Shown here: positions 31,373 to 56,480 of the stretch, in pieces | Layout of the letters: every line of letters starts with the position of its first letter | Numbering within the stretch: position 1 is the stretch's first letter | Assembly (NCBI GenBank): GCA_019914995.1 | Contig: CM034130.1 | Span: 3,472,001-3,536,000, forward strand | DNA length: 64,000 bases | From: Acanthochlamys bracteata | Taxonomy: Eukaryota > Streptophyta > Magnoliopsida > Pandanales > Velloziaceae | Reading direction: 5' to 3' | Made by a program: the position numbers and the translations under genes | Notes under the pieces: model-generated | Databases searched by the model: none | What the model was told of the DNA's origin: nothing | The model's input: the letters and a program-made list of their open reading frames with translations, nothing else

Positions 31373-31494
31373 ATGGTGTCGCGGAAGCTCTAGAAGCGGC
31401 TTGCCGCTAGTGTTCTCAAGTGCGGGAGGGAAAAGTTTGGCTTGATCCAATGAAGTCAATGAGATCTCCATGGGCACTCTCGAGTGTTTCGTTG
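31373..31494 (+). pseudogene. Fragment of 60S ribosomal protein L19 gene (RPL19e), 5' end
   Basis: Starts with an ATG and reads MVSRKL, a stop in place of Gln, then KRLAASVLKCGR. After a one-base shift it continues GKVWLDP and, after another, NEVNEISM. This is the strongly conserved N terminus of eukaryotic L19 (MVSLKLQKRLAASVLKCGRG). The sequence breaks off after about 40 codons. Purine-rich DNA before the ATG looks like the original leader. Clearly non-functional. Confidence 0.8.
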
Positions 31495-31560
31495 ATTCCT
31501 TTGATAGATGTTTTTTGTGCGTCTGCTTTTTTATTTTGTCATATTTTATTTTTATCCCAA

Positions 31561-32112: not shown

Positions 32113-33127
32113 GTGCAAGTCTCTTCGTCGTTATTTTTTGTTGTGTTAATTCAGTTGTTCTTCATCAGTCTATAGTAAATTTGAATAATTTTGTTACTCT
32201 TTTTTTGAAGTTGATTCTAGCTTCTTTACTTGAAAAAGTTCAGGTTCTATAAAGGCAAACATCAACGAAATATATTATATATTTTACTATGCTCAGACTT
32301 TTAGTGTTTTACTGCACTTCACCAAATTAGAGTTTAGACTAAAATGCAAATTTTAGAAAAGTTTATAACTAACAGTTTAGTTATTATTATCGAATGTGGG
32401 TATTTGTAATAAAGATTATAGGCTATAGTTGTTGTGTAATATGTATTTGATATATAATTTGCAAGTATTTAAATTATTTTTGTTGTTAGAGTAATATGTC
32501 TTTGTTAAAGTGATGCACGGTGGGTTTCGCTTGTGATGCAAATGCAAATAAATTATACAGACGATTATGAATGTTATGCTAGTAGTTGTTCTTATGAATA
32601 TATTCTGAAATTATTTTTATATAAAAAATTTGTTTAATATTGTTAATTTTTTTAACTGCATTATTTAATTGTTATTATTTATTATTAATAAGTTATGATA
32701 ATAAAATATTTATATAACTAATAGAAATTAACATATTATTCAAATTTACTATTAATTTTCAATAAATTTTACTATTATAAGAAAAATGTAAATTTTATTT
32801 TATAAGAAATATTAAATTTAATAAAATCAAATAATTTAGAAAAAAGTTTAGAAATTTAATACCCTTAAGTATTAAATAACATAATATAACAAAATTTATT
32901 TAAATATTTTCTAATATAAAATTAACTTTTAATAAAATTTTTGCAACCGTTTAAACTTTAAAGCAGTATAAAATAGTTTTATTCTAAAATTTAAACGTTT
33001 AAGCACCAAATGGAGCCTTAATCGACCAGAATTCTAGTGTCCTCTTCGGCTTCAAAACCCTACGCTTCCGGTGCCATCTCGCCATCTAAGCCATCGCCAT
33101 TGACGGTGAAGAAGAAGTAGGTGCAAG

Positions 33128-35883: not shown

Positions 35884-36714
35884 TAACCATATAGGCTCCA
35901 CTCCGTTTGGACGTACTGAATTTTTTGTGTTTTTAAAATAAAGTTGTTTTATAGTGCTGTAAATGGCTGTGAAGTTTCTGTTATAAAAATAGCTTTATAC
36001 TTTATTGTGCTATTTGATGTTGAAAGTTGAATAAAGTGTTTGGTTAAGCTTGTACCTATTTCTAAAATATGTATATAATGACCAAATTGTCTTAGTTATA
36101 TAATAATTGATATACAATAAAATTTTTAAATTCTTGTTCATATATTTTAAATTAAATAATTTTATAACATAATAATTTTAGTATATACTTTTCTTATATT
36201 AATATTTAAAAATTTAATAACAAATCTATTATTATTATAACATTATAATAATTCAAATTATATTTTAAAAATTATTAATATTATATTATTGGTATCGTAA
36301 TAATTCAAATTATAAATTCTGAAAAATGAATGCGTATATATTGTTTATATATAAAATAACTATACACATAGTAGTTTAACTTATGTTATTATGTATCAAA
36401 AAACGATTCGCATAAACATTATTTATAAAGAACTTGCATGTACACAACATTTATAATAGTTTTTGAGCTACTAACTAAGAATTCCACATATATTATTCAA
36501 TAGCATTACGAACATAACTACAAATATTTTTTTTAGCTACAATTTCTAAATCAACATAGGCTTTTGAAGTACCTCCAAAAAGTGCTTACTAAAAAATAAT
36601 CCTCCGTAAGCAGCAAATCAGTAAATAGCAAAAAAAAAAAAAAAAAAAAAAGAGAAAAGCCATAGACACTTGCATCTATTATTTTGCAAAGAAAATCATA
36701 CCATAAAAGCCCAA

Positions 36715-36814
36715 CTAACTACTCCCATCTCCACTTGTCATAAACTGAAGCCATTCCTCTAGAGGTACAGATTCTGCTCTTCCCAGTGAGTCAAGACAGC
36801 AAGATGCAAGGAAT
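36715..36814 (-). pseudogene. Captured terminal exon of an unidentified host gene inside E1
   Basis: The minus strand has a T-rich tract and AG acceptor at 36815-36816, then an open frame of 32 codons reading FLASCCLDSLGRAESV, PLEEWLQFMTSGDGSS and a stop. Composition is exon-like, while the minus-strand DNA before it (about 36.8-37.7 kb) is intron-like. I do not recognise the protein family. Together with the leader-like block at 38.08-38.35 kb this looks like a shortened genomic copy of one gene, though two sources are possible. Confidence 0.4.
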
Positions 36815-38083
36815 CTAAAATAAGTTGTAAGGATTTACAACTTCAAACAATGTTCTATGGAAATTACCACTATTGATTATCAGTTTAAAGCTAAAGAAAA
36901 TTTATAATAAATAAATTTCAACAGATATATAAAAAAAATGTAACATATATCCTAAAGTTGGTACACATACAATCTGAATAGCTAGAAAAATTTTATACCA
37001 CAATCTCAAGCAAAATAGTAAGAAGCAAATTGAACTAAAAAACAAAAGCAAACACATACGCAATCTAATAAAAAACAGAAGAAAATAAAAGCAAAAGAGC
37101 AAGAAGTAAATGGAACTCCTAAAGTTGCAACACATACAACCTATCAAGATTTCACTTCCTTTTATTTTCTTGACTTCTTTCCCAAAAGCTGAATCAAGAA
37201 GCAAATAGAATTCATAAACAGATGCAAATGGAAGTATAGGGGACATTCATTCTATATTCTTAGCAATTTTTTTTCACAAGAAAGTGAAATCTTGACACAA
37301 ATGATGCATTACTTAGATAAATAAATGCTTCACAGAATTATTGCGATTTAGAACTAAGCCAATACTTCAAATGGATCAGCTATGAAATGCCGAGAATATT
37401 ACATACTCTAGCTATGGAATGCCAACAGAATTTATCCACTTCAATGAACAAAGCTCTCGATTGAAGAACCAAATAATTCTATCAGTAACCAAAACACCAA
37501 AACTGAGGTAAAAATAAGCAGCGATAAGTTCAATCATTTATATGCAACAATACACATAAACAGTGCAAAACTATAAGTAAACCCAAAATCTTCAAACAAC
37601 TTCACCAAGAAATTCTTTTTAACAGAAAATAACTATAAAAATCTTTAAAATTATCAATTAATTCTCAATACCACTCAAAATTTTAACATATTTAGTTTTA
37701 CAAAGATCAAAGATTCGAATTAAGAAACTATAGTCATTTTTAGCCTTTCAAAACTATGCCATGTCTATAGCCACTGAAGGCGGCGAAGTGTGCACAGCGA
37801 CAATTGCACCGGTGATTTTTCGAAATCATTAGAAGCAATTGATTGAAGAAAGAACTCTAATTTTTTGTGAAGATTTTGATTGATTCAGATGCAAACAAAC
37901 AAGAAAATAAATTTGGAGATTGAATAAATGAACAAACTTGGGGAACGAAATCAACACGAACGAAAAATAAAAATTAATTAACGAATTCAGTCAATAACAA
38001 CAATCACACATATTTATCCGTCCATCCACACGAACGAAATCAACAAAAATAAACTAATTCATATAAAATCAACAACCAAACAA

Positions 38084-38350
38084 TTAAATTGAAGTAGGAA
38101 ACGAAATTTTTATTCTTTTTCCACGGCCGCTCTTTAATCCCGCTGCCGTCGAAATGAAAATCCTAAATTGACTCGAAGTTGAAAAAAATTCTAGAAGGGC
38201 GTAGAGATCAGAGTGGAAATGATTTACATGGACGGAGAGATTGGATGGAAAATCGATCGACGATAGAGACCGAAAGAATAGAGAAAAACATTGATCTGAA
38301 AAGAGAGGGTGAAGCGGCCGCAAAAAAATGATCGAGAGAAGAAAATAAGA
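38084..38350 (-). other. Captured 5' leader / first exon-like block in E1
   Basis: On the minus strand a pyrimidine-rich, leader-like stretch (ttctctattctttcggtctc) follows a TATA-like motif at about 38368-38378 and opens a frame of 79 codons beginning MRPLHPLFSDQCF. It is far less AT-rich than the DNA around it. The protein resembles nothing I know and may be untranslated leader. Its place, directly inside the shared right subterminal block, parallels the CUL4 exon in E2 and the leader in E3. Confidence 0.4.
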
Positions 38351-38603
38351 GTTATGGTAGTAGGTAGAAGATATATATTACTTTGTAATTTTGTAAAACT
38401 AATATAGATAAAATAGTATTTCCTTATATCTGAAGCGAAAAGTTGCGAGTGGCTTTATTTGAAGGCATTGAATCGATGCTTTTTCATTTTTAACTGTTGA
38501 AAATAGTTTTTTATAATTTAAAGCTATATTTACCAAACGGCTTTACTATTGTGCTGTGCTTTTCTCGAATTTAAAGCTTAGAAAAGCATAGCTAAACGGG
38601 GCT

Positions 38604-39362
38604 ATAATTTTGTTCAACTTATAGATATTTTCTATCTAAACTCTATACTTAGCTTATATAAAAAGGGAACTTTTCTCGTATCCAAACACATTTACAAATA
38701 AACTTTATTTTAAAAATAAATTTAAATTCATTATTTTCGAAATAAGACCTTATAAACACCATTTTTTAAACAATTCCAGACGGGCCATGATTTTCGAACC
38801 CGGTCAGGTTCGTGGGCCTGAAAATTTAATCCATGCGTCACCCAAAACACAACCGGCCACCGCTAACTAAGTTCTATGCCGTAAACATAGGCCCCCTGTT
38901 GGACTTTATTACGAGTTTGCATCCTGTTGCGTCTGGAATTTTCTTTTGTACATAACTCCTTGAGTGCCCTTAGGGCCTGAGCCTGACCGCAGTGTTAGCG
39001 CCCGCTGCTCCTGTTCTTTCTCTCGAGCTCAAGAACAACAACCAGACTGTTTTCGTGTTTGATTAATTTATTGAAAACAACTTATTCAGGTAACAGAATT
39101 TCGGTAGGGATTGTTTTGAATTCTTCTTCGGGTCTTTTTGTTCTCTGTTTATATCTTAAATTTGAATTTGTTTGTGTAATTCAAGAGAGAGTGCCCTAAT
39201 TTACAGTTTCTAGTTAGTGATTTCTTCTAATTCATTGCTATTTTTCTTCTAACTTTTTCATATTTCAATCATCTGTTTGTTTTCGTTGTTTTTGTCATGG
39301 TGATTTGTATTATGGCCGTTTTGTTTTTCTCTTAATTTCTGAAGGTTGTGGTTGCTGGAAGA
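38604..39362. other. Upstream region and 5' leader of the SR34a-like gene
   Basis: Contains an AT-rich 150 bp, then a GC-richer promoter-proximal part. A CAG|GTAACAG donor at 39090 and an AG acceptor near 39344 suggest a 5' UTR intron of about 255 bp ending 19 bases before the ATG at 39363. Many plant SR genes have leader introns. No TATA box is obvious. Confidence 0.4.
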
Positions 39363-42300
39363 ATGGGCCGCTCGAGCCGAACCATCTTTGTTGGGAATCT
39401 TCCGGGTGATATTCGTGAGCGCGAGGTTGAAGACTTGTTTTATAAGGTTATCTGACTATCATGCTTATAGTTTTCCTTATAATGCGTCCGAAATGGTATG
39501 GTTTTTTCTTTAATGATATTATTGAATGGAATCTCTAACTAGGTGTGCTGATAGTTTAATTTAAATAATGAAGAATGTGCTTGGCTATACTGTTTCGGGG
39601 ACCTCCTTTATACTGATTGGATTTTGTGTTTGTTAAACTTGAGGTTACACTTCTAGTTTGCGTGTTGGTAAGTAGTTGAAAATTGCTTTATGTGCTATAA
39701 CAAAATTGGAAATACGTCTCTTCGATTATACCTGTCTCGACAAGTTTACTAGGGGGTGGAATCTCCAGCTCTGTTTCAGTGTTATTCTCAAAGCTGAAAC
39801 TTGCTGGCTTCATGCAGTATGGAAGGATTATTGACATTGATCTGAAGGTCCCACCAAGGCCACCTGGTTTTGCCTTCGTTGAGGTAATTATGTATTGTAG
39901 AATCCTTAATTCTCTACAAAAAAAGAAGGAATTTGGACAAGGACATGTTGGTATTTTTCTTAGAGGATATTGCTTTTTTATGCTCTTGAACACGACATTG
40001 CTTTCTTGAACATGTTCTTCACTTTTGCATTCTTTTCCTATCTCAGTTTGAAGATTATCGTGACGCTGAAGACGCAATTCGTGGACGTGATGGTTACAAC
40101 TTCGATGGTCACAGACTTCGGGTAGTCTTTTGTGGCTTTATTTCACGAAAAGTGTCCATTTACAGTACAATCTGATTTTATTTTGCATCCAGGTTGAATT
40201 TGCGCATGGGCCACATAGTGGAAGAAGCCATTCTTCATCAGTGGACCGTCATAGTAGTTACAGCAAAGGGAGTAATTATCGCGGTAGCATTTCTCGCCGA
40301 TCAGAATATCGAGGTAAATTCTATTTAGGTGGCATCATTTTGACATGATTGTGCTTTCAGTCACTGGTTGCATGTATAGAAATCTTGAATCTTAACTAGA
40401 ATCTGTGACATTTACATAGTATTAAGTTTCTCTTTGCCTGATTTGCGCAGTTTTGGTAACTGGTTTACCTGCTTCTGCCTCATGGCAAGATCTAAAGGTA
40501 TTTCTTTTTTATTTCCTGCGGTTGTTATGTCATCATGATCTCTCTAAATAAACTTAGCTGTAAAGTTCTCGTGTTTGTACAGGATCATATGCGTCGGGCT
40601 GGTGATGTGTGTTTCTCTGATGTTTTCCGTGACAGCAGAGGTGAACTTCACTAGTTTGTATACCATTTTAATTTCTTTGAGAGTGGATATTCTGTTCAAT
40701 ATTTGTCCTGCATATATATCAAACTTCTGTTTCCATGGATTTTTGTTTGACCTTTTCCCCATGTTGGTTTAAGCCTAATTTAGTTATTCCAAAATGACCT
40801 CCTCTTGGAACACTTTCTAACCATAGCCGTTTCTGCACACACTAGATACCAAACAGGAACCATGAATTTCGATTACCCTACTACAACAATTCTGTATATC
40901 AGGTAGAACCGCATTCTTAGGGTCTAGTTTTACAAAATGGGACTATACTCTCTGATTGTAGCTTCCACTAAGCAGGCTTCTTCTACCTTTACAACTTTTA
41001 GGGTGGCTATCACAAATTATTAGACTGTTGTTTCTGAAAATTTGTTTGTTTTGACTTGACTAAACAGGACACTCAGTGTTCAACTTTTGGTATGACTTAT
41101 CTGTACTGTGGACTTTCGGAGTTCGATTTTGCTCGAGTAGAGCTGCTTTTGAGAAATATGGTTCTTGGTCAGATTAGTATGTCCATTTGGTGTCTGTATT
41201 GACAAATTGCTGCATGTGATGCTATTTATATAATAATATTTGGGAAGAGAAAATGCATCTTTTTTGTTGTTCTAAATGAAATATACAAATTGCAATTAAG
41301 CATCCAACAGAATGCTAAAGAAATCTACCAAAAGAAAAGATATGAAAGCTTTTAAAAAATACAAGTTAGCTAAGAAAGAAATCAAGAAAGTGACTAATTA
41401 GTATGTTTTACAGATTATGATTAAATTATATAATAATTTGGATACTAAGGTGATGCTTGGCTAAGCTTTTCATCTACCTTTCTTTCCAATTATATATTTT
41501 ATGTATTTCAATAAAAAATTTAGAAAATATAGAAAAATTCTACATCGTAAGATTTTATTATTACCTATAGTTATTATTTTTTTAGTGTAAAAAAAGTAAA
41601 ATTCGTTTTTCAAAAATCTTCAAAATATTTTTCGTTTCAAAAAAGCTATTTATTAAAAGAACTCTCAAACATCTCCTAAGGAGGGAGAGAATGCTATCTA
41701 ATAAAATTACACGTCAAGGAAAAAAAAAAGTAGCGATATAAATCAAATTAAATGCATTAAGGATGAGAATCATTCAGTTTTATTTCATAGTAGTGATATA
41801 GCATACAGGTGGAGGAACTATTTTGATAAATTATTTAATAAAAGACATTGTAATTATAACTGACTTGATGGATGTTACTGTAAATAAACATGTTAGTTAT
41901 ATTAGAAGAATCTAACAGTCAAACTTAGGGAGGCTTTGAAAAAATGAAGACAAGGGAAGCTATTGGTTCATATTGGGATCTCAATCGAACTATAGAGATG
42001 TTTAGGTCAAGTAGGCATTACTTGGCTAACAAAATTGTTTAATGTTATTTTAAAGAGTGAAAATATGCCAAATGAATGGAGAGAAAGTGTTCTAGTGCAT
42101 ATTAATGAACATAAAGGAGACATCTAGGATTGTGCGAATTATAGAGAGATTAAGCTCGTGAGCTATATTATGCGGGAGAGAGTTATGGAACATAGGCTAA
42201 GATGTAATTCGAAGTTTCAAAAAATTAATTTGATTTTATGCTAGGTAAATCTACTATAGAAGCGTTTTATCTATTTAGAAAATTGATGGAATAATAGAGA

Positions 42301-45040
42301 GGAATAGAAAAATATACATATAGAGAGGAGCGATTTATCTACTTTAGGAGATTGATGGAACTATATATAAAGGGTTAGGTTGTTGTTGTTGTTGTTGTCT
42401 TTGCTTCTCAATGGAGTTTAATATTTGTTTAGGAACTTAATGGCAAACCTCATATCTTGCACTTGAAGGCTTATTATATTTTCGTTGTCGGATATTAGTT
42501 ATTTGACAACGCTTCATTATATAAAAAATGGTTATATGGACGTCCTGTGTGTGCTCTAAGTTCTAAATTATTGAAGTTATTACCGTAGAAGCAATTATTA
42601 GGCCTTCTATACTGAGACTGAGAGCAGTCATATTGTTATCCTACAGACAAAGCCTTCTTTAAATTCACATCATTGTAATACTTGCTCTTAACTAGTCTCA
42701 TTGGAAGTGGTTTGTTTGTAGTGTACCCATTAGTTTCTTTGTGTGTAATTCTTCAGTGTGCTTTTGGAGCTATTGGGGTTTTGCTTTGAAATTTTTTTTG
42801 GCGGAGTAATCATAATTAAGTTTGTACTGATTGTCATGTTATATGAGATTCTTTGCGTCTCTTACAGGCACTACAGGTGTCGTGGATTACTCAAATTATG
42901 ATGATATGAAGTATGCAGTAAGTTGTTTTTACCGATGGTCATTATTTCATATTTGTATTTTGAACAGTAATTTCTCATATGAGCTCAACTTACCAGATTA
43001 AGAAACTTGATGATTCTGAATTTCGGAACGCATTTTCTCGGGCACGCATAAGGGTAATTTGCAAGTCCTCTCTTCCAGAATATTTTGCAGCGCTATTAAT
43101 AATATTCCATTACAAAAATGAGTATGTTTTAGGTGAGAGAGTATGATTCCTCGAGGAGCCATTCTTGCAGTCGCAGCCGTTCTTATTCAAGAAGCCCTAG
43201 CCGTGACCGTAGTTACAGCAGGAGCCCAAGCAGGAGTAAAAAGTATGTATGATTTGTGGTTTTTGGGTTTTGGTATAGTTCATATTCCAACATTATTGTT
43301 TCTCTGCAGTGACTCTCCTAGATCGAAGCCAGTACAAGGTAGTTTATCTAGATCTAGATCTAGATCAAGATCTGTTTCATCTCGTTCTCGTTCTGGTTCA
43401 AAAGAGAAATCACTGGAAGGGTATGTCTGTCTCCTTTCTGTGTATTTATATTGTCTATTTCGAAGTTTTATCTGTTGTGGTCTACACCGTGCCTACGTTT
43501 TGTCGTCTTTCTTTTTTTTTTTCCTGTTCATTTTTGTTTGGGAGTTACTGATTTTCTGTTGTTGATTTTGTTTTTTGCTGTATTCCTTTCTGAAGGTTAT
43601 CTTCAGGCCTTTAATTTAATATTTGAAAATGTTGGAAGCCATTATATTTATAAGTCCCCATCGAAGCTTTTAAACATTATTTCTCATCAGAAACTTGGCT
43701 TGTAGATCAGAGATTATAGTGTATACTGAATTTGACCATCCAATGCTTAGGGACCTCTGAGTGGACCCACAATGCAGTTTTTGCTTGACTTCATTTGATT
43801 GTATTTCTTCTTATGACGCAGTTCTGTTTGGTGGGTTTCCCCTCATATTTTGTTACACCTATATTTAAGTCTCTTTTCTATCCATGTATAATAAGAAAAG
43901 TTGAGATACCTTCTTTCCGAGTTGATGCCATGTCGCTTTTGACATTGAAGTCAAAGTTTAATGAATGGCTTCCTTCCAAATAATAACTGCAAATTTTACC
44001 TCTTGTTAAAAACCTGCAGTTATTGACCTTTTTTTTACCTGATCTCTGTGTTGCTCTTTTTTGGTAGTTGAGAGAGTCTGTTCTTTCCAATTTTTTCTTC
44101 TGTTCAACTTGCTCAATTTGAAATTATTGTTTTGGTTTGAGCATGTCCGTGCAGAGCAGAAAATGCCAGTGCATGCTGCAATATCTTTATTGTGTGACAG
44201 GATAATAGAGTCATCATTCCAAGTTGGATGGTGTGTTCCCTGTGGTCTTGATTAGAAGACATGGCGCCATGGTTATAATCTTCGTTTTTGAAAGTTACCT
44301 TCTTTCTTTTCTAGATTGGGACATGTGCGGTGATCTGGGAATTGCACATTAGGAATTGATGGGTTTACATGCGAAAAGATGCATCCTTGGGTCTTTTGAG
44401 GTATGATGTGTCCTAAAGCAATTTTGTGTGTGCAATTTGCATGCTGATGTTTGAGCAGCTAGCCAGCTGACAATACCTGATCCAGAAAGGACCAGGGAAC
44501 AACTTTGCCAAAAGAAGATAGTTAACCTTTTTGGTCTGGGTTGTAGATTGGGAAGTGGATTATTTGGGAGCTTAGAAGAGGAATGGCCAAGTCCAGAATG
44601 TTATAATGAAAGTGTATTCTCATTTGGCACAGTTAAAGTGGGTGTCTTGTGGCTTATGCTGTGGGGTTTGTCTTGGTTTTTATATTGATAGTCTGTGGGT
44701 AATGATGCGTGTCTAATTAACAGCTTAAGAAAGCAGTTATCATTTTGTTATCATTTATGATACCCATTCAGGTGAATCATTGGAGATTCTAATTGTGATC
44801 TAAAACAAGACTAGGTTGTAATGTGTCTATTGCTTGATCTTCTTGCAGATCCAGATCAAGGTCCAGGTCCAGATCACCTTCACCCTCTGTAAGTTCCTAG
44901 GATCTCTCTCTTTGTGTGTGAGCACATACACACGCCTCTTTGAGTAAGAAGTTGCATTTATTTTGCAGCCACCCCGTAACAAGAGCAAGAGCCCAAACAA
45001 GCGGAGCCCTAGCGGAAGCCCAGCTGTTTCACAGTATTAG
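39363..45040 (+). CDS. SR34A: SR34/SR34a-like serine/arginine-rich splicing factor (ASF/SF2 subfamily)
   Basis: Nuclear splicing factor that binds exonic enhancers. Twelve exons: 39363-39446, 39818-39883, 40047-40121, 40193-40313, 40451-40497, 40583-40640, 42868-42917, 42997-43053, 43133-43242, 43310-43420, 44849-44888, 44969-45040, all GT-AG and in phase, giving 296 residues. RRM1 (about 6-80): RNP2 TIFVGNLP, then [16 protein letters not shown] and RNP1 GFAFVEFED. Linker (about 81-114) is Ser/Tyr/Arg-rich rather than Gly-rich. The second, pseudo-RRM (about 116-186) carries the diagnostic ASF motif SWQDLKDH (126-133). RS domain 187-296 with [10 protein letters not shown] runs, SP dipeptides and end SGSPAVSQY. 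The Ser-rich linker and SP-rich tail favour SR34a over SR34/SR30. Intron 6 is unusually long (2.2 kb) through two transposon insertions; intron 10 (1.4 kb) could host the alternative splicing typical of the family. Confidence 0.94.
41449..41676. mobile_element. Tourist/Harbinger-like MITE in intron 6 of SR34a, TAA duplication
   Basis: 228 bp. Exact TAA on both sides (41446-41448, 41677-41679). Left end ggtgatgcttggc, right end inverse of ggagatgtttgag. This is the best-bounded copy of the family in the window and gives the consensus terminus GG(A/T)GATGTTTGG. Confidence 0.75.
41925..42397 (+). mobile_element. RTE-type LINE remnant in intron 6 of SR34a
   Basis: The plus strand, in shifting frames, reads [53 protein letters not shown] and a degraded GRSTMEA motif. 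This is the plant RTE reverse-transcriptase region (family pattern KMPDEWR..LVPIYKNKGD, NYRGIKL.SH, ERVIEHRLR, QFGFMPGRSTMEAI). It then jumps to the element end and a (TTG)n tail at about 42379-42396, the usual 3' end of plant RTEs. The N-terminal endonuclease and the rest of the reverse transcriptase are missing. It is 5'-truncated, internally deleted, full of stops, and inserted in sense with the host gene. Confidence 0.8.
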
Positions 45041-46909: not shown

Positions 46910-47765
46910 TAGTGGTGGCATTATGGATTGGTGGATCAGTTTCGGGTTGACTTATTTAATAATCGGATCAAATTCGTTCAATCTTAACTCAACTCATAAA
47001 ATTATACGGGTCAAAATTTTCAACCCTAGCTCAACCTATTAATAACCGGATCAAATTCGGATCGATCTATTTAATAATTAAAATTATTAATTATTAATTT
47101 TATATTTTAAACTTCAGTGAAATTATAAGATTAGTTCGAATGAAAGTGGACGATATTTTTACTGACGAGATATAATTATGTCCGACAAAATATGCATTCC
47201 TTAATATCTTTATCGGTCCTTACAATATAAAAAAATATATTATTTTTATTTTTTAAAAATATATGATAATAGCTAAAATCTATGATTATAAATACATATT
47301 AATAATTTCGATACAATCTTTTATAAATATATCTATTTAACAAAATTTTCACAAAAATTTTTATACGAAATCTAATTTCGTCATTAAATACCTACATAGT
47401 AATACTTTCGATAATATTATAATTTTTATTTTACACTATTTTACTAAGATATAAAAATAAAGAATTAATTATAAATACAATATAATTTAATAGTTTGTAA
47501 ATAACTATTATCGATTATTTTTATTACTAATATTTTATTATATAGTAAGAAAAAATTAAGAATTGTTCCTTCAAAAGCTGACATTTCGAATTGGTGGGTC
47601 AATTTCGGGTTAACCTAGATCGACCTATTTAATAACCGGATCAAATTCGTTCAATCCTAATTCAACCCATATATTTATACGGGTCAAAATTTTCAACCCT
47701 AATACTGATTAAACATGTCAGTGTCGGATTAAATTTTCGTGTCGGATCATATATTGCCACCCCTA
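46910..47765. mobile_element. Non-autonomous hAT transposon with perfect 8-bp target duplication
   Basis: 856 bp. The 8-mer acatctat occurs at 46902-46909 and again at 47766-47773, exactly flanking the element. Left terminus tagtggtggcatta, right terminus inverse of taggggtggcaatat: the TAGGGGTGGCA-type end common in plant hATs. A subterminal unit of about 75 bp (aaccggatcaaattcgttcaatc ... cgggtcaaaattttcaaccct) occurs twice in direct orientation, near 46961-47031 and 47629-47703. The core is AT-rich with no transposase. The perfect duplication points to fairly recent insertion. Confidence 0.88.
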
Positions 47766-48223
47766 ACATCTATCTCACAGGGTAACTCAAGTAACAGCAG
47801 ATTGGTGTGGTTTCTAACTTGAAAAATACAACTAATACTCCATATATACATGTGCATGTTCGACAGACGGACAAGATTCAGTTACCAATACCATTGTCTA
47901 GTACATAACCAGATAGCGATTTAGCAGACCAGCTTTGAAATCTAGTATTCTCTCAACTCTCGTTAACGACATTCATCATATTTCCTACTCATTTAAAACT
48001 AATCAAAATTCTGGACGAGTCAATTTTCTGTAACGTAGTTAAAGGAACCAGCTCGGTGCTAGCTAGCTAGCTAACAGTGATACTTCAAGTTGGTTCGGCG
48101 CGAAAAGCGCGTGTTGCACACAAACTTCCCGCGAAAATTCCACTCCTTCAAATAGCTCTTAATTTCATGTGCTGAAACAAACTGAATGGATGTTATGATC
48201 TCTTTGATTTAACGAATAGAAAT

Positions 48224-48766
48224 ATGAATAGCAATAGAAGTCGGCAGCAGCAACCGCAGCAGCAGCAGCAGTACAGAGGAGTTCGTGTTCGCGCAGGCAA
48301 ATGGGTGTCAGAGATCAGAGAGCCAGGGAAAGCTTCGCGAATTTGGCTCGGAACTTTCCCTACTGCTGAGATGGCTGCAGCTGCTTACGACTCTGCAGCT
48401 ATTGCTTTGAGGGGAGAACATGCCGTGCTTAACTTCCCTGATTCTGCGTTCTCTCGACCAGTTGCTATGACCACTGCAGCTTCTGATATTCGTGCTGCAG
48501 CAGCAGATGCTGCTACTGCTATCGCTGCAGAGAACAGAAGAATGATTAATGATACAACTACTAATGCAGATCAAGGAAGTAGCAGCGTGCAGCAGGATGA
48601 TAATTGGTTTGTTGATGAGGAGGAAATATTCGAAATGCCAAAGCTGTTAGACGACATGGCAGAAGGAATGCTCATGCATCCGCCGAGGTTCAACCAAGAC
48701 TGTCCCGATCACTACTATGATTCCGGCAGCAGCTCATCAGGAGGGAATTTATGGAGTTACCATTGA
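48224..48766 (+). CDS. AP2/ERF transcription factor, DREB-type group III (ERF025/ERF027-like)
   Basis: Intronless, 180 residues. A Gln-rich N terminus (QQQPQQQQQ, from CAG/CAA repeats at about 48246-48270) leads straight into the AP2 domain (17-73): [19 protein letters not shown] and [19 protein letters not shown], ending [16 protein letters not shown]. Val28 and Glu33 are the DREB-specific residues at AP2 positions 14 and 19, so it should bind DRE-like sites, unlike the CBF pair in this window, which have Asp at 19. The segment 79-98 is almost all Ala. The C terminus carries the group III motif [18 protein letters not shown] and ends LWSYH. It lacks the CBF flanking signatures, so it is a TINY/ERF02x-type factor rather than a CBF. 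The start was chosen as the first ATG of the frame. Probably stress- or development-related; the target is not known. Confidence 0.9.
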
Positions 48767-49073
48767 TATCATCATGGAGATCGAAACAACGATCATCTTT
48801 TTTATTTCAATTCTCAAATATATTATGTGTCTTGTATTATGGATCGAAGGTTATGCATGGAGTAGTTTTTCCTATAGCTCATACCATGAAATACGTACGT
48901 ATAATTGTTGATGTGGTTATGTACAAACGAGTATAGCACCAAATGAATGGGCCAGGTGACCCAAAAACTGGGCCCAATAAAATTGCCATATAAATATCGG
49001 TCGTTGAAGCAGAGCAGTGCTCAACAATCACAAGTTCACAGCAATATCTATCTACCTTCTAGCCACAACACCA

Positions 49074-52000
49074 ATGGCAATGGCATTCAAAGCAATCCGC
49101 CCACCGCCCCCGTGTTTCAACTACCGCTCAGCGGTGCTAGCCGACACACGAGCTTCGGCGGCGACGTTGAAGTTGCAACCTGAGCTGATTGGTTTAATTG
49201 AAGCTGGTGATCTTGTACTGGTACCGAAGAGAAGGTTTGGGCCTGTGCCTGAGTGGAGGAAGGAGTTTGTGGAGCCGGAGCAGATTTGGCTGATTGGGAC
49301 TTCGCATGTTTCGGAATCGTCTGCTGATGATGTGGAGGAAGTGGTGAGAGCTCTCCGCCCTGAGAATGTTGTCGTTGAGCTTTGCCGTAGCAGGCAAGTG
49401 TAGTTTATTTGTTCGCCTTCCTGATTTATCTGGTTGTTTTTGATTGATTGCAAAGCATGTAAGCTAGTGTTTAATTTGTAGGAGTAAGCTTCTGTTTTTG
49501 CAATGCTATCTGGAAATTATCTTATCAAAATTGCTTCAAGATTCTAATTGGATTCATGAATTGCTTTGCATATTAAACTGTTGTGTAGGCAAAATTGTAG
49601 AATATTCTTAAGACTATGGGAATTTGTATGATTTATTAAAGAAAGTTTTATTTTATTTAGTTTGGGAAAAAACTGTGATATGTAGGTTTTGCCTTTGTTT
49701 TTTTAATAGTTTGGTTTTCTTTAAAGGTTTTCAAAGAAGGTTATGATTTCATTAAGATTACATGCTTGGATTTTCAAATTTGCTACTTCATAATTCTCGC
49801 TTTTTGCGAATAATAAAATGATTATCCTTTGTTTTTTCCCCCTCTCTTTTTTTTGAAGCAATTACAGTCTATAATAAGATGGTTTTATTTTTGGATGATA
49901 TGATGGTACTAAGTGCTGCTTTGATTTCTGGGGTTCACATGTTGGAATTTGGGTTATATGGAATCCCGAATGTGATGCAATCTTTCACACGAAGAAATAC
50001 TAAACAGTTTTATGATTGCACTTTTCTCATTCATATATTTCATTAGATTCTTAGGTCTATCTAATCTCACTAGTTGATGCCTGGACTTCTAGTGCAAAGC
50101 TGTCACATTAGACATACCCTTAAGAGCTAAACTGCAGTTTATGGAGTTGATTACAGAACATTCATGTAATTAAAGAAAGAAGACCAAATAGTTTGGTAGC
50201 AGGAGTTCAATATCATGCTTGAAATGTAACACAACCCATTTGATGCCTTTATTGGTAAAATTAATACAGTCCTGTCAGTTGATTTTCAGATTCAGTTTCT
50301 TGCCTTTTGTCCTCTCAAAATTGTATCTAACTTCTGCATCTGCAGAAGACATTTTCAGAGCAGGAATAATGTATGCCTCTAGCAACAATGACGATGCTCC
50401 ACTTCTGAAGTCCAATATGTTCTCCTTGAGCGGATCTAAATTTTTTGGGGCTGTCTATCGTAGCATAAATTTGGGTGAGTTTAATTGTGCTTGCTATTGC
50501 AAATTGTTTTAGCTTGCGTTAATGTGCTTATGCAATGGGAAAACAGTTTGCCTCCATGAAATTTCTACAGCTGCAACTGTGAAAGTCTACTAACTCAAAC
50601 TTTCATTTTTTTCTTTTTTTCCCTTACCTCTGAACATTTTGCTTTTAGTTTTTATGTGATTATTTAGAAAGAACAGGCTACTTGCTGTTTCTTAATAGTT
50701 CAAACAGTAGATAAATAGTGTATCCAATAAACCTTCTATTGTCTCATATCACTTCAGGTGGGCAAAGTGCTCTTGCTTTAAGGTTGCTTCTTGCTGTTTT
50801 CTCTTCCAAAGTTTCATCTGGAGCAAATCGTCCTTTTGGAGAAGAGGTAGAAATCCATTTAAATTTTCTGTTGGTCTTCAATGTGATGATTTTCTACTCA
50901 AATGTTAATCCTGGATTTGATTTTGGTTTACAACTGGAGTTCTACAGTTTCGAGCTGCCAGAAAAGTCTCTGAAGAAATTGGTGCTCAAATTGTCTTAGG
51001 AGATCGACCAATCGAGATTACAGTATGTAAATTATGTGTTATATGATAGAGTACTTATCTACAGGATGATTTTCAAGACTTGCATATGTGTAGAATTTAC
51101 CTAGACACCTTCCTTTGCTTTCAGCTTGAAAGGGCTTGGCGCTCTCTCAGTTTGACTGATAAAATGAGACTGGTCTCCTTACTCTTTCGTGGCATAGCTT
51201 CTCCAGCACTTGAACTGTCTAACAATAGCTTAAAGGTTCTTGTCTATGTCAGAATTATTTGGGTTGAAGTTACTATCTAACTTTGTTTATTTTCTTGTGC
51301 TTGCTCAAAGGATTTTATGTCTTAGTGCTGAAACGATTGGTGATAAGTTCACACTAGATGTTTAAGTTAGATGTGACACAATTGTGGCTACCTTACTCTA
51401 TTCTGAACTAACTGATGTGTATGGGGCCAGAGGATTAGCAACTCATTGGGAAGCATTCATAGAAGTTATGTCATTGACAAGGAATTATGCTGATGTTATG
51501 TGTCAAACATATACTGTAGATAGATTTCATTATGCATAGTTTGCAAAACAATGTTCCCTGGACCAATAACATCAAGGACTACAACACAATCTAGCATATT
51601 GATCTGCCTCATGTAAGATGTTTCTGCAATGCTGTTCAAAAGTTTGGTTTCCCATTTCATGCACCTCTGTACACTGCGATCACATTGACAACTGTATTGA
51701 TACATGCTTTAGTTCATCTAAACCCATTGAAAGCTCGACAGAGGTTTATGGTGCTGACTTTTCCACTTCTTTGTAGGATCACGAAATGCAAGACAGCCCC
51801 TTTCAGCTTTATGAACAGCTGAGCAGTTCATATCCTTCACTCGTGCAGCCTCTAATACATGAGCGCGATACAGTATTGATCTCTCCGTGAAGTTTGCGGT
51901 TGTATAAATCTTGTTGAAGTCAAATCATTTCATAAATCTGAAATTGCACATCTAATACGTGCAAGAAACAAGAATTCCGCATACCTTTTAGATGTTTCAT

Positions 52001-52330
52001 TCTGTTAACTAACAGAAGTTATTATTGTCTAGAGTACTTAAAGTAAATTTAATGCTAATTTTGCAGTATCTAGCGTGGTCTTTGAAGAGGAGCAAGGCTG
52101 TTAACAACTGCAAGAGGGTGGTAGGTGTGATTGGAAGGGGTCACCTGAATGGCGTAGTGTATTCATTGATCTCTGATCAGGGAAACTTGCGATTCCGTGA
52201 TCTTGTTGGCCAGTCACCTGAAGAAGGCTCGAATAGATGGATAACTTCGATTATCCAGAGTTTATCTAGGGACACTATTCTAGCTATTATACTGTGGGCT
52301 ATATATGAACTTTGGAAGAGTTCATCTTAG
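49074..52330 (+). CDS. TraB family protein (plant TRABD-like)
   Basis: Plant member of the TraB/PrgY/TRABD family, related to bacterial plasmid pheromone-shutdown proteins and TIKI-type metalloproteases; plant members are linked to mitochondrial or ER membranes. Seven exons: 49074-49393, 50359-50474, 50758-50846, 50948-51022, 51125-51235, 51777-51872, 52067-52330, giving 356 residues. The first intron starts GC, not GT; all others are GT-AG. Landmarks: QIWLIGTSHVSESS (GTSH at 75-78), the VVVELCRSR strand, RVVGVIGRGHLNGV (GRGH at 292-295, the second conserved His motif), and a C-terminal hydrophobic helix at 338-350 (DTILAIILWAIYELW). The N terminus is basic, Pro- and Ala-rich (MAMAFKAIRPPPP), a possible organelle-targeting peptide. 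An in-frame ATG at 49017 would add 19 residues; MAMAFK is preferred by its transit-peptide look. Biochemical activity in plants is not settled. Confidence 0.9.
49394..49399 (+). other. Non-canonical GC-AG intron donor in the TraB gene
   Basis: The exon end reads AGCAG|GCAAGT. Splicing here to the AG at 50357-50358 gives CRSRAGIMYAS, keeps the frame and leaves no inserted residues. The nearby GT would add a codon and lose the frame. AG|GCAAGT is the known consensus for the rare GC-AG intron class. Confidence 0.85.
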
Positions 52331-52363
52331 GATTGTAACATTGCATTATTGGAGAAAGTTATT

Positions 52364-53692
52364 GGCCCCGTTTGGATGTGCTGAAATTTTTGTGCTTTTG
52401 AAGTTAAGTTGCTTTAGAGTGCTGTAAGTGGCTGTAGAGCTTTTGCTATAAAAGTAGTTTTATCTTAAAAAATATTTGGATAAATTTTTTACTGAAAGCT
52501 GACCTAAGTGTTTGGTTAAGATTATGCTTATTTCTGCATAAAATACATAATGACTAAAGTACGTCTAGATATATAATAATTGATATATTATAAAATTTTT
52601 AATTTTTATATATTATTTATTTTTTAAATTTAATAATTTGATTATGTATAATTATATAAATAATTTTTTATATCAATATTTATAAATTTATTAACAAATT
52701 ATGTTAATGATATAAATCAATAATTAAATTTAATAATATTTATTATACAATTATTATTATATATTATATTTAAAAAATTATCAAAAGTTTTTTATATTAT
52801 CAAAATTTGAAAAATATACTTCACACCCTCAGAAGATGATTGAGGAGTGTTCTATCAATAGCCTCACCCAATCTGCTTAACGATGAAAATTATTAAATGA
52901 AAGCATTTAATAATTTTAGTAGCAAAATTCATCAACTGACATGTTCGAGTCCAATAGAGCCAGCAAAATTCAACAATTTGCTTCACTACAGAATCCCAAA
53001 CAGAGAGAGTCAAAAACTATCACCTTTGTTGAACTTAATAATGAGCTGCTTCTTCGTGGAAGGTTGCGGCGGGGTGGCCTTTCTCCTCGAAAGATTAGCA
53101 GCTCCACCAGTCGCAGCAGGCCCAGTCGCTCCGGCTTTGAGCTCTTCTTGGTCCAACAGCATGACGTCATCCTCCTCCGCGTGATGCGTGGTATGGTTTC
53201 TGTTTTTCTCCGGTGCAGGTTTTCTTCATGGCAGCGTTGGCGTTGGCGGAGGCGGCGGAGGAGGAAGGAAATGAAGCGGAGTTGATGGCAGCGAATGGAC
53301 GTTTGTGGTGAGTCATCAATTGAATCCTGGAGCATAAATCATCGCTCGTACGAACTGTATCGCTAGCGATGGCGGCGATGAGCAATCGCGCGACGATGAA
53401 GAGAAAAAGAGAAGCGGTGAAACAAAATTGGTCCTGATATCGGGTCTGCCTAAATATATATTGTAATTGTGCTAAATTATTTTGGGCAAAATAAATATTC
53501 CACAAACCCAGCGAGAAAAGCCCCGCGCGGATTTGCTTGAAAATCTTCGATTCAAAGCTTTTTTTTTTTATTTTTTACTATTCAAAGCTGCTTATAACGG
53601 CTAAAAATAGGTGTATCTAAACGAACGCCTACTTCACTATTTTGTACTTTTTTCGAACTTAAAATCTAAAAAAAGTAAAGCCAAACAGAGCA
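52364..53692 (+). mobile_element. 1.3 kb gene-carrying non-autonomous DNA transposon (copy E2)
   Basis: Left terminus ggccccgtttgg, right terminus inverse of tgctctgtttgg, a 12-bp imperfect inverted repeat; ATT on both flanks (52361-52363 and 53693-53695) may be the target duplication. The left 380 bp match the left end of E1 closely, and the right 150 bp match the right ends of E1 and E3 more loosely. It begins only 33 bp after the TraB stop codon, so it supplies part or all of the TraB 3' UTR. No transposase. The interior contains the first exon of a CUL4 gene on the minus strand. Confidence 0.7.
53024..53316 (-). pseudogene. CUL4: Captured first exon of CULLIN4 inside E2
   Basis: The minus strand starts at an ATG (53316) with MTHHKRPFAAINSASFPS, continues through an Ala/Ser run and MKK, shifts frame, then reads EEDDVMLLDQEELK and AANLSRRKATPPQPSTKK followed by QLIIKFNK. 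The block AANLSR.KATPPQP..KK is unique to the N terminus of plant CUL4, scaffold of the DDB1-based ubiquitin ligases. It stops at AAAG|GTGATA, where the CUL4 first exon ends with a GT donor, so genomic (not mRNA) sequence was captured. A TATA-like motif (tatatattt) lies about 140 bp upstream in the element. One apparent frame change and several substitutions mean it no longer encodes the authentic N terminus. Confidence 0.75.
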
Positions 53693-53850
53693 ATTGTAGA
53701 TAACTATAACTTAAAGCAGAAAACAAACAAGACTTAAACAAGTAATAACACGGTGATACATTAGCTTTTACCTGAAAAACTTTGAAGTGGGAAAAACCTC
53801 GGTAGAAATCACTAACAAAATATTTAAGCAGAAACCAGTATCAAAATATT

Positions 53851-56480
53851 TGAGGAGCAACGCTTTTTTCCTGCTTTTGACGAAAAAAAGCACAGCATAA
53901 TAATAAAGCCGTTTCACAAAGAGAGCTTTTGATCGCGAAAAGCGGCTTTCAAACAGTTAAAAACGAAAAGCATCGATCTTTTAAAGCCGCGCGACGGCTT
54001 TTAACTAGGACATATAAAATGACTTTTGTGTTCATCATAAGTTCATAAAATTACAGAGGTTGATATACCTTCTACCCACCAGTAACAGCTCTACAAAACT
54101 CATTTCTCTCCTTTCTCTTGCTCGCACCCGTTCACTACCGCTCTTCCGCGGCTGTGATTCTTTCTCTGTCAAATATGATTTGCTTTTTCAATGGCGATCT
54201 TTCCTGTTATCTTCCTTCGACTTGTTATTCTGACCACGATTTGCTCACCATTTCTTTCCTATTGTATATAGCTTCTCTTCTAGCATTACGTTCCTTTGTT
54301 CCAACACATCCCTTCTGACTCCGACGCGATTATTTTTATAAATTTAGGCCATTCCGTTCTCTCGCCTGCGGTTACCAATATTCCTTTTGCAATATGTAAT
54401 TCCGATCCCATCTTGCTCTCGTTGGTTTAGGGTTTCAATCCCACGGGTCTCTTCGTCGTTGAAATTTGTTTACTGAGGTACAAATTTGTTGAAAGTTGTT
54501 GCTTTTGTCGAATGAGTTATTTGATTAAAATCTCATTTTGTTGTTGTTGTTTTTTTAGGGATTTTTTTGATTGAAATTCACTGATTTTTCATTTACTTGT
54601 GCAAAAATTTTCTCCTTAGTTAAGCTATCTGCAATGACAAATCATACCTTTCTTGATGGATTGGTTTGAAGTTGAATTCAAGAAGAAGAAGAAAAAGAAT
54701 CAAAGGCACGGTAACATAAGCAACTTAAGCGATCAATCCAAATAAGTAATCTTTTATTTTTGTTTCTGAATCAAACCTTTTTATTCTTACCTTGTGCTAT
54801 AATATTCTAATTTTAGCAAGCTCTGTGTAGGATTGTTCTTGTTGTCGTTGTTGATTTTCACGACAATAGTGGCATTACAGACATGGTTGGTGGATGAAGT
54901 GGAGGAGCATAAGTAAATCAAACCAGTCATGTCCCTGATTCTTTCATTTCATGGTAAGCGAAAGTAGTTTAATTTCTAAAATACCTCAAAAAAACTCGCT
55001 TTTTTATTAATTGCACTTCCAACAGTTTCAATATGAGTAACTTGATGGTGTGATGGTTAAACTAGTGTAGAGATTGATCCTTCTTTGTATAGATCATTTG
55101 TTGGTATTAGCATTAGTTACATGTTGATCTAGAGATTTGAATGCTATTCTAGCTGGTGGACACTATTATTGTTGCTTGACTTGCAATATCATTGAATTAC
55201 TTAATTGGTTGGTTGGTGGGAAACTTTAAACTGATAAATTAGAGTTTGCTTAAGCTAATATTGTGAATAGCATTTATGGGGTTTTCTTGTTGGTAATACT
55301 TTATAAGTTGCTTATTGGTGGCTTTGCTTCTAATTTTATTTGATTCCTTCGATAGGTATTTTAATTGCATTGATACCCTACTTGAGTTATAAAAATATAA
55401 GTATGAATTCTATCTTTCATTCAAGATTAATGGCAAGTACTTGAAATGTTAGAAAGATATGATTATTTCATTGAAAGGTAGTTAGAAAAATATAAGTCAA
55501 TGGCATTATTTTCATGTCTGTTCAGTACTTGGTTTTAATCATTGAATCTTCTTTGATAAGCACCCAACTTGCACCCAACAGTTTTAAAGCATGTTAACTT
55601 TCAAGTCATTCAATTAATCCTTATAGGTTAATGAGTAGCTTCAATAATTATAAGAGATTATTTTGTCAAGTGTTGTATTTACAAATTTGAGACAGTGACA
55701 ATGTGTTTGAATTATTTGTTTTAGTTAATTGCTTACTGTCTGACGTATGTGCTTCTGCATGGGTATATTACGAAGTAGTTTTTGGAATAATAAGATTTGC
55801 TTTAACTTAGACCTATTGTGGATGGGTACACATGGGCATCCGTGTGTTTCCCACATTAAACTTTTCAACTTAACTTTGTTTTCTAACTTATGAGACAAAA
55901 TTTTTCTTTCTTTTGTTGCTAATCAATTGCTGCCACATTTTTTTTATTGATACCGGCTAGTTTTCTTGGTGGAGCATGTAACAAGTAAAGCATAGAGTCG
56001 AACAAAGCTGAAGCATAGAGTCAAGCAAAGCATGATTTTTTCTTTTTCTTTTCCAAGTAGGCTTTTTACGGTTCATTGAAATGTTTTTTGACATTGAGAA
56101 TGGGATCAGAAATTAATTTTTAGACTGGCTAATATATTTTATAATTGTATTTGAAATAGTTAGGTACTTTTTGTATTTTGTAATATGTTCGTACTGCTTC
56201 ACAATTTAAAATTTTAATTATGTTGAAAAGTTTAGTAAGTGCAACTTTGCAATTTGTTGTGTTTTTAAGTCCATAGACTTGATTCGGTAAGGATCAAAGT
56301 TGATCACTTAGCCAAACATATTTTTAATTTTTTTTTATGAAAGAGCTTAAACAGTAAAGTTTATTTAAACAGAACTAAAAAAAAACAGTTTTCTAATCAA
56401 AAGTTCAACAATCTTTTTTTTCAACAAAAGCATATAAACAACAGCTTTCGTTCAAAAATTTTTAATTTAAAGATTAGCCA
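53851..56480 (-). mobile_element. Third member of the gene-carrying transposon family (copy E3), inverted; right limit uncertain
   Basis: The left 250 bp match the right end of E1 in inverse orientation: aaaagcacagca.aata.taaagccgttt, then aacagttaaaaa.gaaa and agcatcgat, then aaaattaca and ataccttctaccca, in the same order. The left terminus is near gaggagcaacgc but is decayed. Inside follow a TATA-like motif (catataaaatg, 54009-54019), a pyrimidine-rich leader-like exon to about 54477 ending ctgag|gtacaa, and intron-like DNA. A short frame at 54656-54742 reads MDWFEVEFKKKKKKNQRHG. The other end may be at 56300-56480, where gttagccaaa-type motifs recur, but this is weak. Confidence 0.4.
54063..54477 (+). 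other. Captured 5' leader-like exon in E3
   Basis: Pyrimidine-rich and GC-richer than its surroundings, with ctctcctttctcttgctcg, the plant leader hallmark ggtttagggtttcaatccc, and a plausible donor (ctgag|gtacaa). No ATG frame gives a recognisable protein. It probably is the first, non-coding exon of a captured host gene, and could still be transcribed from the TATA-like motif just upstream. Confidence 0.35.

What the first reader, a model, noticed from the sequence alone, without database searches (positions are those of the whole stretch)
35894..56480. Transposon family whose right end repeatedly abuts captured gene 5' ends
Three related elements (E1 35894-38603, E2 52364-53692, E3 about 53851-56480, inverted) share a roughly 150-250 bp right subterminal block. 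The block ends in an AAATTACA-type motif plus a TATA-like motif (tatatatc / gatatacc / tatatatt), followed by cttctacc in E1 and E3. In all three the next sequence inward is a different pyrimidine-rich leader or first exon reading away from that end. In E2 it is CUL4 exon 1. The interiors are otherwise unrelated. Known Pack-MULEs and Pack-TYPE elements capture host sequence, and rice Pack-MULEs prefer GC-rich 5' ends. A family that always places the captured 5' end beside its own TATA-bearing terminus would be a ready-made carrier of promoters and first exons. Seen: homology, order, orientation. Inferred: the mechanism and any bias.
Basis: partly seen in the sequence, partly recalled or inferred. 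Interest (0 to 1): 0.8.

Follow-up and report, generated by a model that had tools for sequence, protein, structure and literature searches.

The report
Plant jumping genes carrying gene pieces
A small family of defective plant transposons here has picked up pieces of ordinary host genes, a known habit of such elements; that they always set a gene's front end beside their own promoter is suggested but not shown.

Summary
E1 (35894-38603) and E2 (52364-53692) look like bounded elements: left ends 75% identical over 406 bp, homologous right ends, short inverted termini (GGCYCCGTTTGG type) and 3-bp flank matches (ATA, ATT). E3 shares E1's right block (about 225 bp), but its far end at ~56480 has no secure family homology and no target duplication. 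E2 carries two non-adjacent CUL4 pieces in sense order with intron sequence, so capture was from DNA. E1 and E3 interiors match no Pfam family; they only look like 5' leaders plus introns. I found a fourth family left end (E4, 33017), with fragments of a P4-ATPase and of ribosomal protein L19 (with ATG) within 1.9 kb of it; the P4-ATPase piece is internal to its gene. In all four the sense strand runs from right to left end (two by identified genes, two by composition), which chance gives 1 time in 8. The TATA-like edge is not conserved beyond chance, and TATA is common in this AT-rich DNA. Best reading: Pack-TYPE elements with PIF/Harbinger-like ends, a known kind. The promoter-carrier claim is untested without a genome.

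The parts
35894..36289 (+). E1 left terminus and left subterminal region; TIR GGCTCC-ACTCC-GTTTGG (read as GGCTCCGTTTGG with a 5-bp insert)
   Evidence: 75% identical to E2 left end over 406 bp; part beyond ~36080 is AT-rich and less telling
35891..35893 (.). ATA, candidate 3-bp target-site duplication of E1, left copy
   Evidence: sequence
36300..38345 (-). E1 interior; reads like a 5' leader plus intron on the minus strand; source gene unknown
   Evidence: pyrimidine fraction 0.733 in first 150 nt, reached by 0.05% of window stretches; T-A skew 0.237, reached by 0.5% of 2-kb windows; no Pfam family
38346..38603 (+). E1 right subterminal block and terminus (AATTACA/TATA-like motifs at inner edge)
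   Evidence: right-block profile 228 bits (sequence in model)
38604..38606 (.). ATA, candidate 3-bp target-site duplication of E1, right copy
   Evidence: sequence
52361..52363 (.). ATT, candidate 3-bp target-site duplication of E2, left copy
   Evidence: sequence
52364..52767 (+). E2 left terminus (GGCCCCGTTTGG) and left subterminal region
52824..52874 (-). Second CUL4 piece in E2 (RLGEAIDRTLLNHLLRV), from a later part of the gene, preceded by an acceptor-like CAG
52886..52917 (.). Perfect 14-bp inverted repeat (4-nt loop) in the chimeric intron of E2
53025..53111 (-). CUL4 exon 1 piece in E2 (TGGAANLSRRKATPPQPSTKKQLIIKFNK) followed by a splice-donor-like GTGATAG
53112..53440 (-). Rest of E2 captured stretch: presumed start of CUL4 exon 1 and 5' leader
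   Evidence: inference from position and GC 0.49-0.52; homology of the MTHHKRP..MKK part not significant (422 of 2000 shuffles)
53426..53692 (+). E2 right subterminal block and terminus
   Evidence: E1R-E2R 44 vs 21.8 +/- 2.6, 0 of 300; right-block profile 207 bits (sequence in model)
53693..53695 (.). ATT, candidate 3-bp target-site duplication of E2, right copy
   Evidence: sequence
53862..54086 (-). E3 right block (inverted); outer ~10-20 bp degenerate, no TSD
   Evidence: E1R-E3R 93 vs 20.6 +/- 2.5, 0 of 300; right-block profile 185 bits (sequence in model)
54087..56300 (+). E3 interior; reads like a 5' leader with a donor-like site and T-rich intron; source gene unknown
   Evidence: pyrimidine 0.700 in first 150 nt, reached by 0.28%; T-A skew 0.204, reached by 2.3%; no Pfam family above cut-off
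32847..33017 (-). E4: fourth family left end (inverted), TIR GGCTCCATTTGG, flanked outside by TTA
   Evidence: E2L vs E4L 52 vs 23.7 +/- 3.5, 0 of 200 shuffles; E1L 36 vs 23.2 +/- 3.3, 1 of 200; first profile search, without it, gave only E 0.45
31120..31296 (+). P4-type ATPase (flippase) internal coding fragment, presumed E4 cargo
   Evidence: Pfam PF16212 E 3.8e-17; DRS2 E 2.7e-8
31373..31472 (+). Ribosomal protein L19 N-terminal fragment with start codon, an in-frame stop and a change of frame, presumed E4 cargo
   Evidence: 48 PDB sequences, all named L19 or eL19, best E 9.3e-9 over residues 1-35 (pieces joined with X); PF01280 E 6.7e-5, below cut-off

Best explanation
E1 and E2, very probably E3's right block, and E4's left end belong to one family of non-autonomous plant DNA transposons with short PIF/Harbinger-like inverted termini and asymmetric left (~400 bp) and right (~260 bp) subterminal blocks. 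The blocks are the element's own conserved ends; the middle has been replaced by copied host DNA, that is, Pack-TYPE transduplication. Capture was at DNA level: E2 holds a CUL4 exon 1 piece, the start of its intron and a later CUL4 piece in sense order with the part between missing, which suits template switching during gap repair or fusion of neighbouring insertions followed by internal deletion. The common inner edge of the right block is most simply the edge of the retained ancestral end. Shown: family homology, termini of E1 and E2, gene fragments, direction of the identified fragments. Inferred: capture mechanism, the gene origin of E1 and E3 interiors, that the E4-side fragments belong to E4, any promoter role of the block.
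For: Left-end homology, right-end homology with shuffle controls, TIR tests (E2L-E1R 0 of 500, E1L-E2R 4 of 500, E2L-E2R 6 of 500 shuffles), 3-bp flank matches, CUL4 pieces, fourth left end, P4-ATPase and RPL19 fragments. No transposase family among 40 ORFs of 50 aa or more in and around E1-E4. Grapevine PIF elements carry transduplicated exons and introns (PMC2528002, section read), and Pack-PIF elements with one or two gene fragments are described in maize (PMC8903248, section read).
Against: E1L-E1R similarity alone is not significant (91 of 500), and whole-end left-right comparisons within E1 and E2 show nothing. Flank triplets ATA and ATT are not the TTA/TAA expected of PIF/Harbinger, and 3-bp matches are short. 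No parent genes and no further copies could be examined. E4 has no identified right end, so its cargo is assigned by position only.
Confidence: 0.75

Rival explanations
1. Promoter-trap family: the right block is a working transposon promoter, and the family preferentially acquires or retains host 5' leaders and first exons placed just downstream of it, so that it spreads ready-made transcription units.
For: In E1, E2 and E3 the stretch inside the right block is pyrimidine-rich on the strand reading inward (0.73, 0.60, 0.70 over 150 nt; background 0.50 +/- 0.065). T-A skew of E1 and E3 interiors (0.237, 0.204) is above that of three gene regions of the window (0.07-0.14). E2 has a CUL4 exon 1 piece, and E4 cargo includes an RPL19 start; sense direction is the same in 4 of 4. 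The inner edge ties for the best-conserved 20-column stretch. Promoters in MULE TIRs drive Pack-MULE interiors (PMC3310237, passages).
Against: Only one of three adjoining segments has an identified gene. Same direction in 4 of 4 has a two-sided chance of 0.125. E2's pyrimidine excess is unremarkable (6.6% of stretches reach it at 150 nt, 9.8% at 300 nt) and so are the T-A skews of E2 (0.043, 31%) and E4 (0.122, 12%). E3's TATA-like motif is GATATACC. Conservation at the inner edge does not exceed permuted columns (12 of 20; permuted mean maximum 11.7, P 0.54). E4 carries an internal P4-ATPase piece.
Confidence: 0.12
2. The right block is the retained promoter end of an autonomous ancestor's own gene. 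Its inner edge is simply where internal deletion and filling tend to stop, with no preference for captured 5' ends.
For: A similar inner edge in three copies, with E1-E2 and E1-E3 homology up to it (E2-E3 there not significant, 34 of 300). Breakpoints skewed to internal TE positions and microhomology are reported for animal Pack-TIRs (PMC8277862, passages).
Against: No autonomous copy was available; no transposase found.
Confidence: 0.35
3. E3 is not a bounded element: a solo or decayed family right end lies in front of an ordinary non-coding or unrecognised transcribed region.
For: No secure far-end homology, own ends not alike, no matching flanks, degenerate terminus.
Against: A weak TIR-like GGACATATTTGGCT at 56489 (rank 33 of all window sites); its first 45 bp reach E1R and E2R at the 5% and 11% shuffle level (25 and 53 of 500), and single tests over 170 bp reach 8 of 200 (E1R) and 7 of 200 (E3R).
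Confidence: 0.45
4. The shared right block is an ordinary host gene promoter copied by segmental duplication.
For: It holds TATA-like and AATTACA motifs in front of pyrimidine-rich sequence.
Against: In E1 and E2 it ends outward in an inverted terminus with a 3-bp flank match, and both are paired with a homologous left end.
Confidence: 0.04

Closest known systems
Pack-PIF / Pack-TYPE elements (maize Zm-Pack-PIF cluster 18; PMC8903248)
   Same: Short-TIR non-autonomous elements with conserved ends and host gene fragments inside, sometimes from more than one gene; related copies often near each other
   Different: Here larger interiors (E1, and possibly E4) and a proposed fixed placement of 5' gene ends, which the passages and the two sections I read do not report
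Grapevine Pifvine-3 with transduplicated exons and introns (PMC2528002)
   Same: Dicot PIF elements holding up to 3.5 kb of host exon and intron sequence
   Different: Pifvine-3 includes 33 copies with over 90% of the transposase; no transposase family was found here in the ORFs searched
Pack-MULEs
   Same: Capture of host gene fragments, with a preference for GC-rich sequence in rice and maize, and promoters in the TIRs (PMC3310237, passages)
   Different: MULEs mostly have long TIRs and 9-bp target duplications (9-bp figure recalled); here TIRs are about 12-14 bp and flank matches are 3 bp
Medicago PIF/Harbinger elements (PMC2213677)
   Same: TIRs such as GGGTCCGTTTGGTTC and GGCTMTGTTTGGATT, G(N)5GTT motif, 3-bp target duplication (passages)
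   Different: Their target duplications are TTA/TAA; E1 and E2 show ATA and ATT

Membership tests
Pack-TYPE transposon (E2) | Terminal inverted repeats with target-site duplication | tested here: met
   45-bp end test 6 of 500 shuffles, though the whole ends compared show nothing (283 of 300); ATT on both sides
Pack-TYPE transposon (E2) | Captured host coding DNA between the ends, no transposase | tested here: met
   two CUL4 pieces against a recalled reference; no transposase family in E2 ORFs of 50 aa or more
Pack-TYPE transposon (E1) | Captured host coding DNA between the ends | tested here: inconclusive
   no Pfam family in three minus-strand frames or in the 10 ORFs of 50 aa or more on either strand; only leader-like composition
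Pack-TYPE transposon (E3) | Two matching ends with target-site duplication | tested here: not met
   own ends 162 of 500; flanks do not match
Pack-TYPE transposon (E4) | Two matching ends with target-site duplication | tested here: inconclusive
   left end found with TTA outside; the best candidate partner, 29840/29841, also has TTA but may belong to a separate MITE and shows no right-block homology to E3R
PIF/Harbinger superfamily | TIR with G(N)5GTT motif | tested here: inconclusive
   met exactly by E2L (GGCCCCGTT); E1L only after discounting a 5-bp insert; E1R and E2R have A and T at the first base; E4L has ATT in place of GTT
PIF/Harbinger superfamily | 3-bp target duplication TTA/TAA | tested here: not met
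   E1 ATA, E2 ATT (3 bp, other triplets); E4 left flank TTA on one side only
PIF/Harbinger superfamily | Mobilised by a PIF/Harbinger DDE transposase | not testable with these tools
   no genome held
Pack-MULE | Long TIRs and 9-bp target duplication (9 bp recalled) | tested here: not met
   TIR about 12-14 bp; no 9-bp flank match by eye

The most novel reading that the evidence does not exclude
A family of short-TIR transposons whose asymmetric right end is a mobile core promoter, and whose capture step is tied to transcription start sites, so that copies regularly carry promoter plus host leader plus first exon in one fixed orientation.
Probability: 0.1. Interest if true: 0.7.

Novelty: new member of a known kind. 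Interest (0 to 1): 0.33.

Why it matters
Gene-fragment capture by TIR transposons is well known, but why particular gene parts are taken, and in which direction, is not settled. A family with asymmetric ends gives a natural direction marker (right against left end), so one genome-wide count would test whether capture is tied to gene 5' ends and orientation. If the bias held, such elements would be direct sources of new promoter-exon units; if not, this is an ordinary Pack-TYPE family.

Tried and rejected
Exact-pattern scans for the family ends gave nothing in viral contigs or genome contigs, and a CUL4-exon search of genome contigs confirmed none of 594 matching stretches; plants are not expected there, so this says nothing about the family. 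A text search for the terminus CCCCGTTTGG listed 15 papers, none on this by title (listing only).

A TIR remnant inside E2's intron (GTTTGGGATTCTG near 53000) was considered and dropped: it scores about -10 with the end model. Further end candidates: nine sites (eight high-ranking ones and E3's far end) were each compared with five known ends under two scoring schemes, 90 tests in all. Only 33017 stood out; isolated low values elsewhere (3 of 200 for 51795 against E1L; 3 and 3 of 200 for 45008 against E3R) were not followed, and site 1838, ranked between them, was not tested. Homology between E1 and E3 leaders beyond the block: 13 of 300 shuffles reach the score with a lenient scheme, 296 of 300 with a strict one; not accepted. 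Pairing E4 with 29840 was considered: TTA on both sides and the best end score on the plus strand between 27000 and 32900, but 29840-30049 may itself be a separate MITE, its body has about a dozen AT-rich relatives among the first 15 rows, and similarity to E1R and E2R is weak (12 to 109 of 200) and to E3R absent. TAL-effector hits for the 31920-32112 exon-like stretch are sums over many repeats of less than 5 bits each, judged chance and not followed. UBA2_C for the first CUL4 piece (E 0.033, 0.005, below cut-off both times), Hamartin in E3 (0.045) and CENP-C_mid near E4 (0.043), all below cut-off, were dropped.

PDB searches of E1 and E3 frames were not done, so the absence of protein matches there rests on Pfam alone; ORFs under 50 aa outside the frames were not searched.
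Full report
What was checked. The window looks like plant nuclear DNA, judged from its three AP2-domain ORFs, a RING-H2 ORF and genes split by apparent introns; the species is not given and no genome is held.

Ends. E1 and E2 share their left ends: 75.1% identity over 406 bp, E 2.6e-62, score 296 against 43.4 +/- 7.4 in 300 shuffles. The inner half is AT-rich and adds little. E1 and E3 share a right block of about 225 bp (score 93 against 20.6 +/- 2.5), and E1 and E2 align over 137 columns next to the terminus (44 against 21.8 +/- 2.6); E1-E2 homology also holds at the inner edge (124 against 71.6 +/- 12.8, 0 of 300). E2 against E3 is not significant directly (70 of 300; 34 of 300 at the inner edge). 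A profile built from the three finds these three strongly and otherwise nothing better than E 0.0014, which is the reverse strand of E1's own end.

Termini. E2L reads GGCCCCGTTTGG, E1R (inward) AGCCCCGTTTAG, E2R TGCTCTGTTTGG. E1L is GGCTCC-ACTCC-GTTTGG, which I read as the same end with a 5-bp insert. Pairwise 45-bp tests: E2L-E1R 0 of 500, E1L-E2R 4 of 500, E2L-E2R 6 of 500, but E1L-E1R 91 of 500; over whole ends there is no left-right signal in E1 or E2 (199 and 283 of 300). Immediately outside, E1 has ATA on both sides and E2 has ATT on both sides (sequences). Medicago PIF/Harbinger elements have the G(N)5GTT motif, TIRs such as GGGTCCGTTTGGTTC and TTA/TAA duplications (PMC2213677, passages). 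The ends here fit the motif well in E2L and less well elsewhere, and the 3-bp length but not the triplet, so I call them PIF/Harbinger-like and do not file them formally.

E3. Only the right block is secure. Its outermost 10-20 bp are degenerate, its own two ends do not match (162 of 500), the far end at 56489 has no significant similarity to E1L or E2L (profile E 0.64) and only marginal similarity to right ends (25 of 500 for E1R; 8 of 200 for E1R and 7 of 200 for E3R). The flanks do not match. E3 as a bounded element is not shown.

A fourth member. The first left-end profile had a sub-threshold hit at 33017-32892 (E 0.45), and BLAST a 41-bp match there (85%, E 3.9e-6). The 14-bp end model also lists 33017 on the minus strand (rank 11). 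The 170 bp inward from it match E2L (52 against 23.7 +/- 3.5, 0 of 200) and E1L (36 against 23.2 +/- 3.3, 1 of 200); of nine sites tested this was the only one to stand out. It is flanked outside by TTA. Within 1.9 kb inside it lie a fragment of a P4-type ATPase (31120-31296, PF16212 E 3.8e-17; DRS2 E 2.7e-8) and a fragment of ribosomal protein L19 with its start codon (31373-31472, eL19 residues 1-35, E 9.3e-9). Both read on the plus strand, toward the left end, and the RPL19 piece is broken by a stop and a change of frame. The right end was not settled, so the cargo is assigned by position.

Cargo of E2. The minus strand holds TGGAANLSRRKATPPQPSTKKQLIIKFNK followed by GTGATAG, and further on RLGEAIDRTLLNHLLRV after an acceptor-like CAG. 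The second piece has only one PDB hit, cullin-4B, at a non-significant E 1.6; the first has none and a sub-threshold rival, UBA2_C (E 0.005, 17.8 bits against a cut-off of 25). Two pieces of one gene in order make CUL4 the better reading. So E2 holds two non-adjacent CUL4 parts in sense order with intron-like sequence between: DNA-level capture with the middle lost. The stretch between the block and the first secure match (about 330 bp) would fit the start of exon 1 and a 5' leader, but its own homology is not significant (422 of 2000).

Cargo of E1 and E3. No Pfam family in pieces of three sense frames each, nor above cut-off in ORFs of 50 aa or more on either strand. The first 150 nt inside the block are pyrimidine-rich: 0.733 (E1) and 0.700 (E3), reached by 0.05% and 0.28% of window stretches on either strand; E2 has 0.600 (6.6%). 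The T-A skew over 2 kb of interior is 0.237 and 0.204, against 0.07-0.14 in three gene regions of the window; E2 (0.043) and the E4 side (0.122) are unremarkable. This looks like leaders and introns in E1 and E3, but does not prove a captured gene. The three interiors are not demonstrably related to one another.

No transposase. Forty ORFs of 50 aa or more overlapping E1, E2-E3 and 29840-33017 were searched one by one; the only family above its cut-off is the P4-ATPase one.

The special claim. For it: sense direction runs from right end to left end in 4 of 4 (two by identified genes, two by composition), and E2 fits a first exon. Against it: chance gives 4 of 4 in one direction with probability 0.125; E4's cargo includes an internal piece; 18% of 25-bp stretches of the plus strand hold TATA and 6.4% hold TATAWA; E3's motif is GATATACC; of 211 ungapped columns 95 are identical in all three, and although a stretch at the inner edge ties for the most identical columns (12 of 20), permuted columns do as well (P 0.54). 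One 64-kb window cannot decide it.

Mechanism. Two published models fit: fusion of neighbouring insertions with loss of inner ends (PMC8903248, section read) and gap filling or fork switching guided by microhomology (PMC8277862, passages). I found no strong internal TIR remnant, which slightly favours the second, but without parent sequences this is inference.

Literature. PIF elements with transduplicated exons and introns are reported in grapevine (PMC2528002, section read; passages) and Pack-PIFs in maize (PMC8903248, passages, two sections). In six searches on gene capture and TIR families (listings), the passages of a 2026 review (PMC13317346) and the passages and sections named above, I saw no report of a fixed 5'-end placement beside one terminus; the library holds open-licence papers only, and a 2011 paper on directional acquisition by rice Pack-MULEs (recalled) was not held.

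Changes made on checking. I added the whole-end left-right result, the marginal E3 far-end values, the E2 and E4 skews, the UBA2_C rival, the tie at the inner edge, and the ORF-by-ORF Pfam searches; the G(N)5GTT row moved from met to inconclusive.

Verdict.

Noticed in passing
29840-30049: Tourist-like MITE candidate (GAGGTCCGTTTGG...CCAAATGTTCCT) with TTA on both sides (read); its AT-rich body (about 29873-30048) has about a dozen BLAST relatives in the first 15 rows shown, e.g. 58108-58266, 23835-23973, 22414-22601.
   Followed up: partly
31557-31778: Another AT-rich MITE-like stretch, with GTGTTTAT-type ends and TAA after its right end, lying between the RPL19 fragment and a further exon-like ORF (read).
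   Followed up: no
31920-32112: Exon-like open stretch with acceptor- and donor-like ends (RYIAHARRGVAAKNRKLLMKGTKL...), no Pfam family.
   Followed up: partly
53804-53855: 26-bp tandem duplication (81%) ending just at the degenerate outer end of the E3 right block.
   Followed up: no
21222-21899, 27405-28214 and 48176-48766: Three AP2-domain ORFs, two of them close relatives that look like DREB1/CBF proteins (recalled label).
   Followed up: no
52886-52917: Perfect 14-bp inverted repeat inside the chimeric CUL4 intron of E2, possibly a scar of the rearrangement.
   Followed up: no
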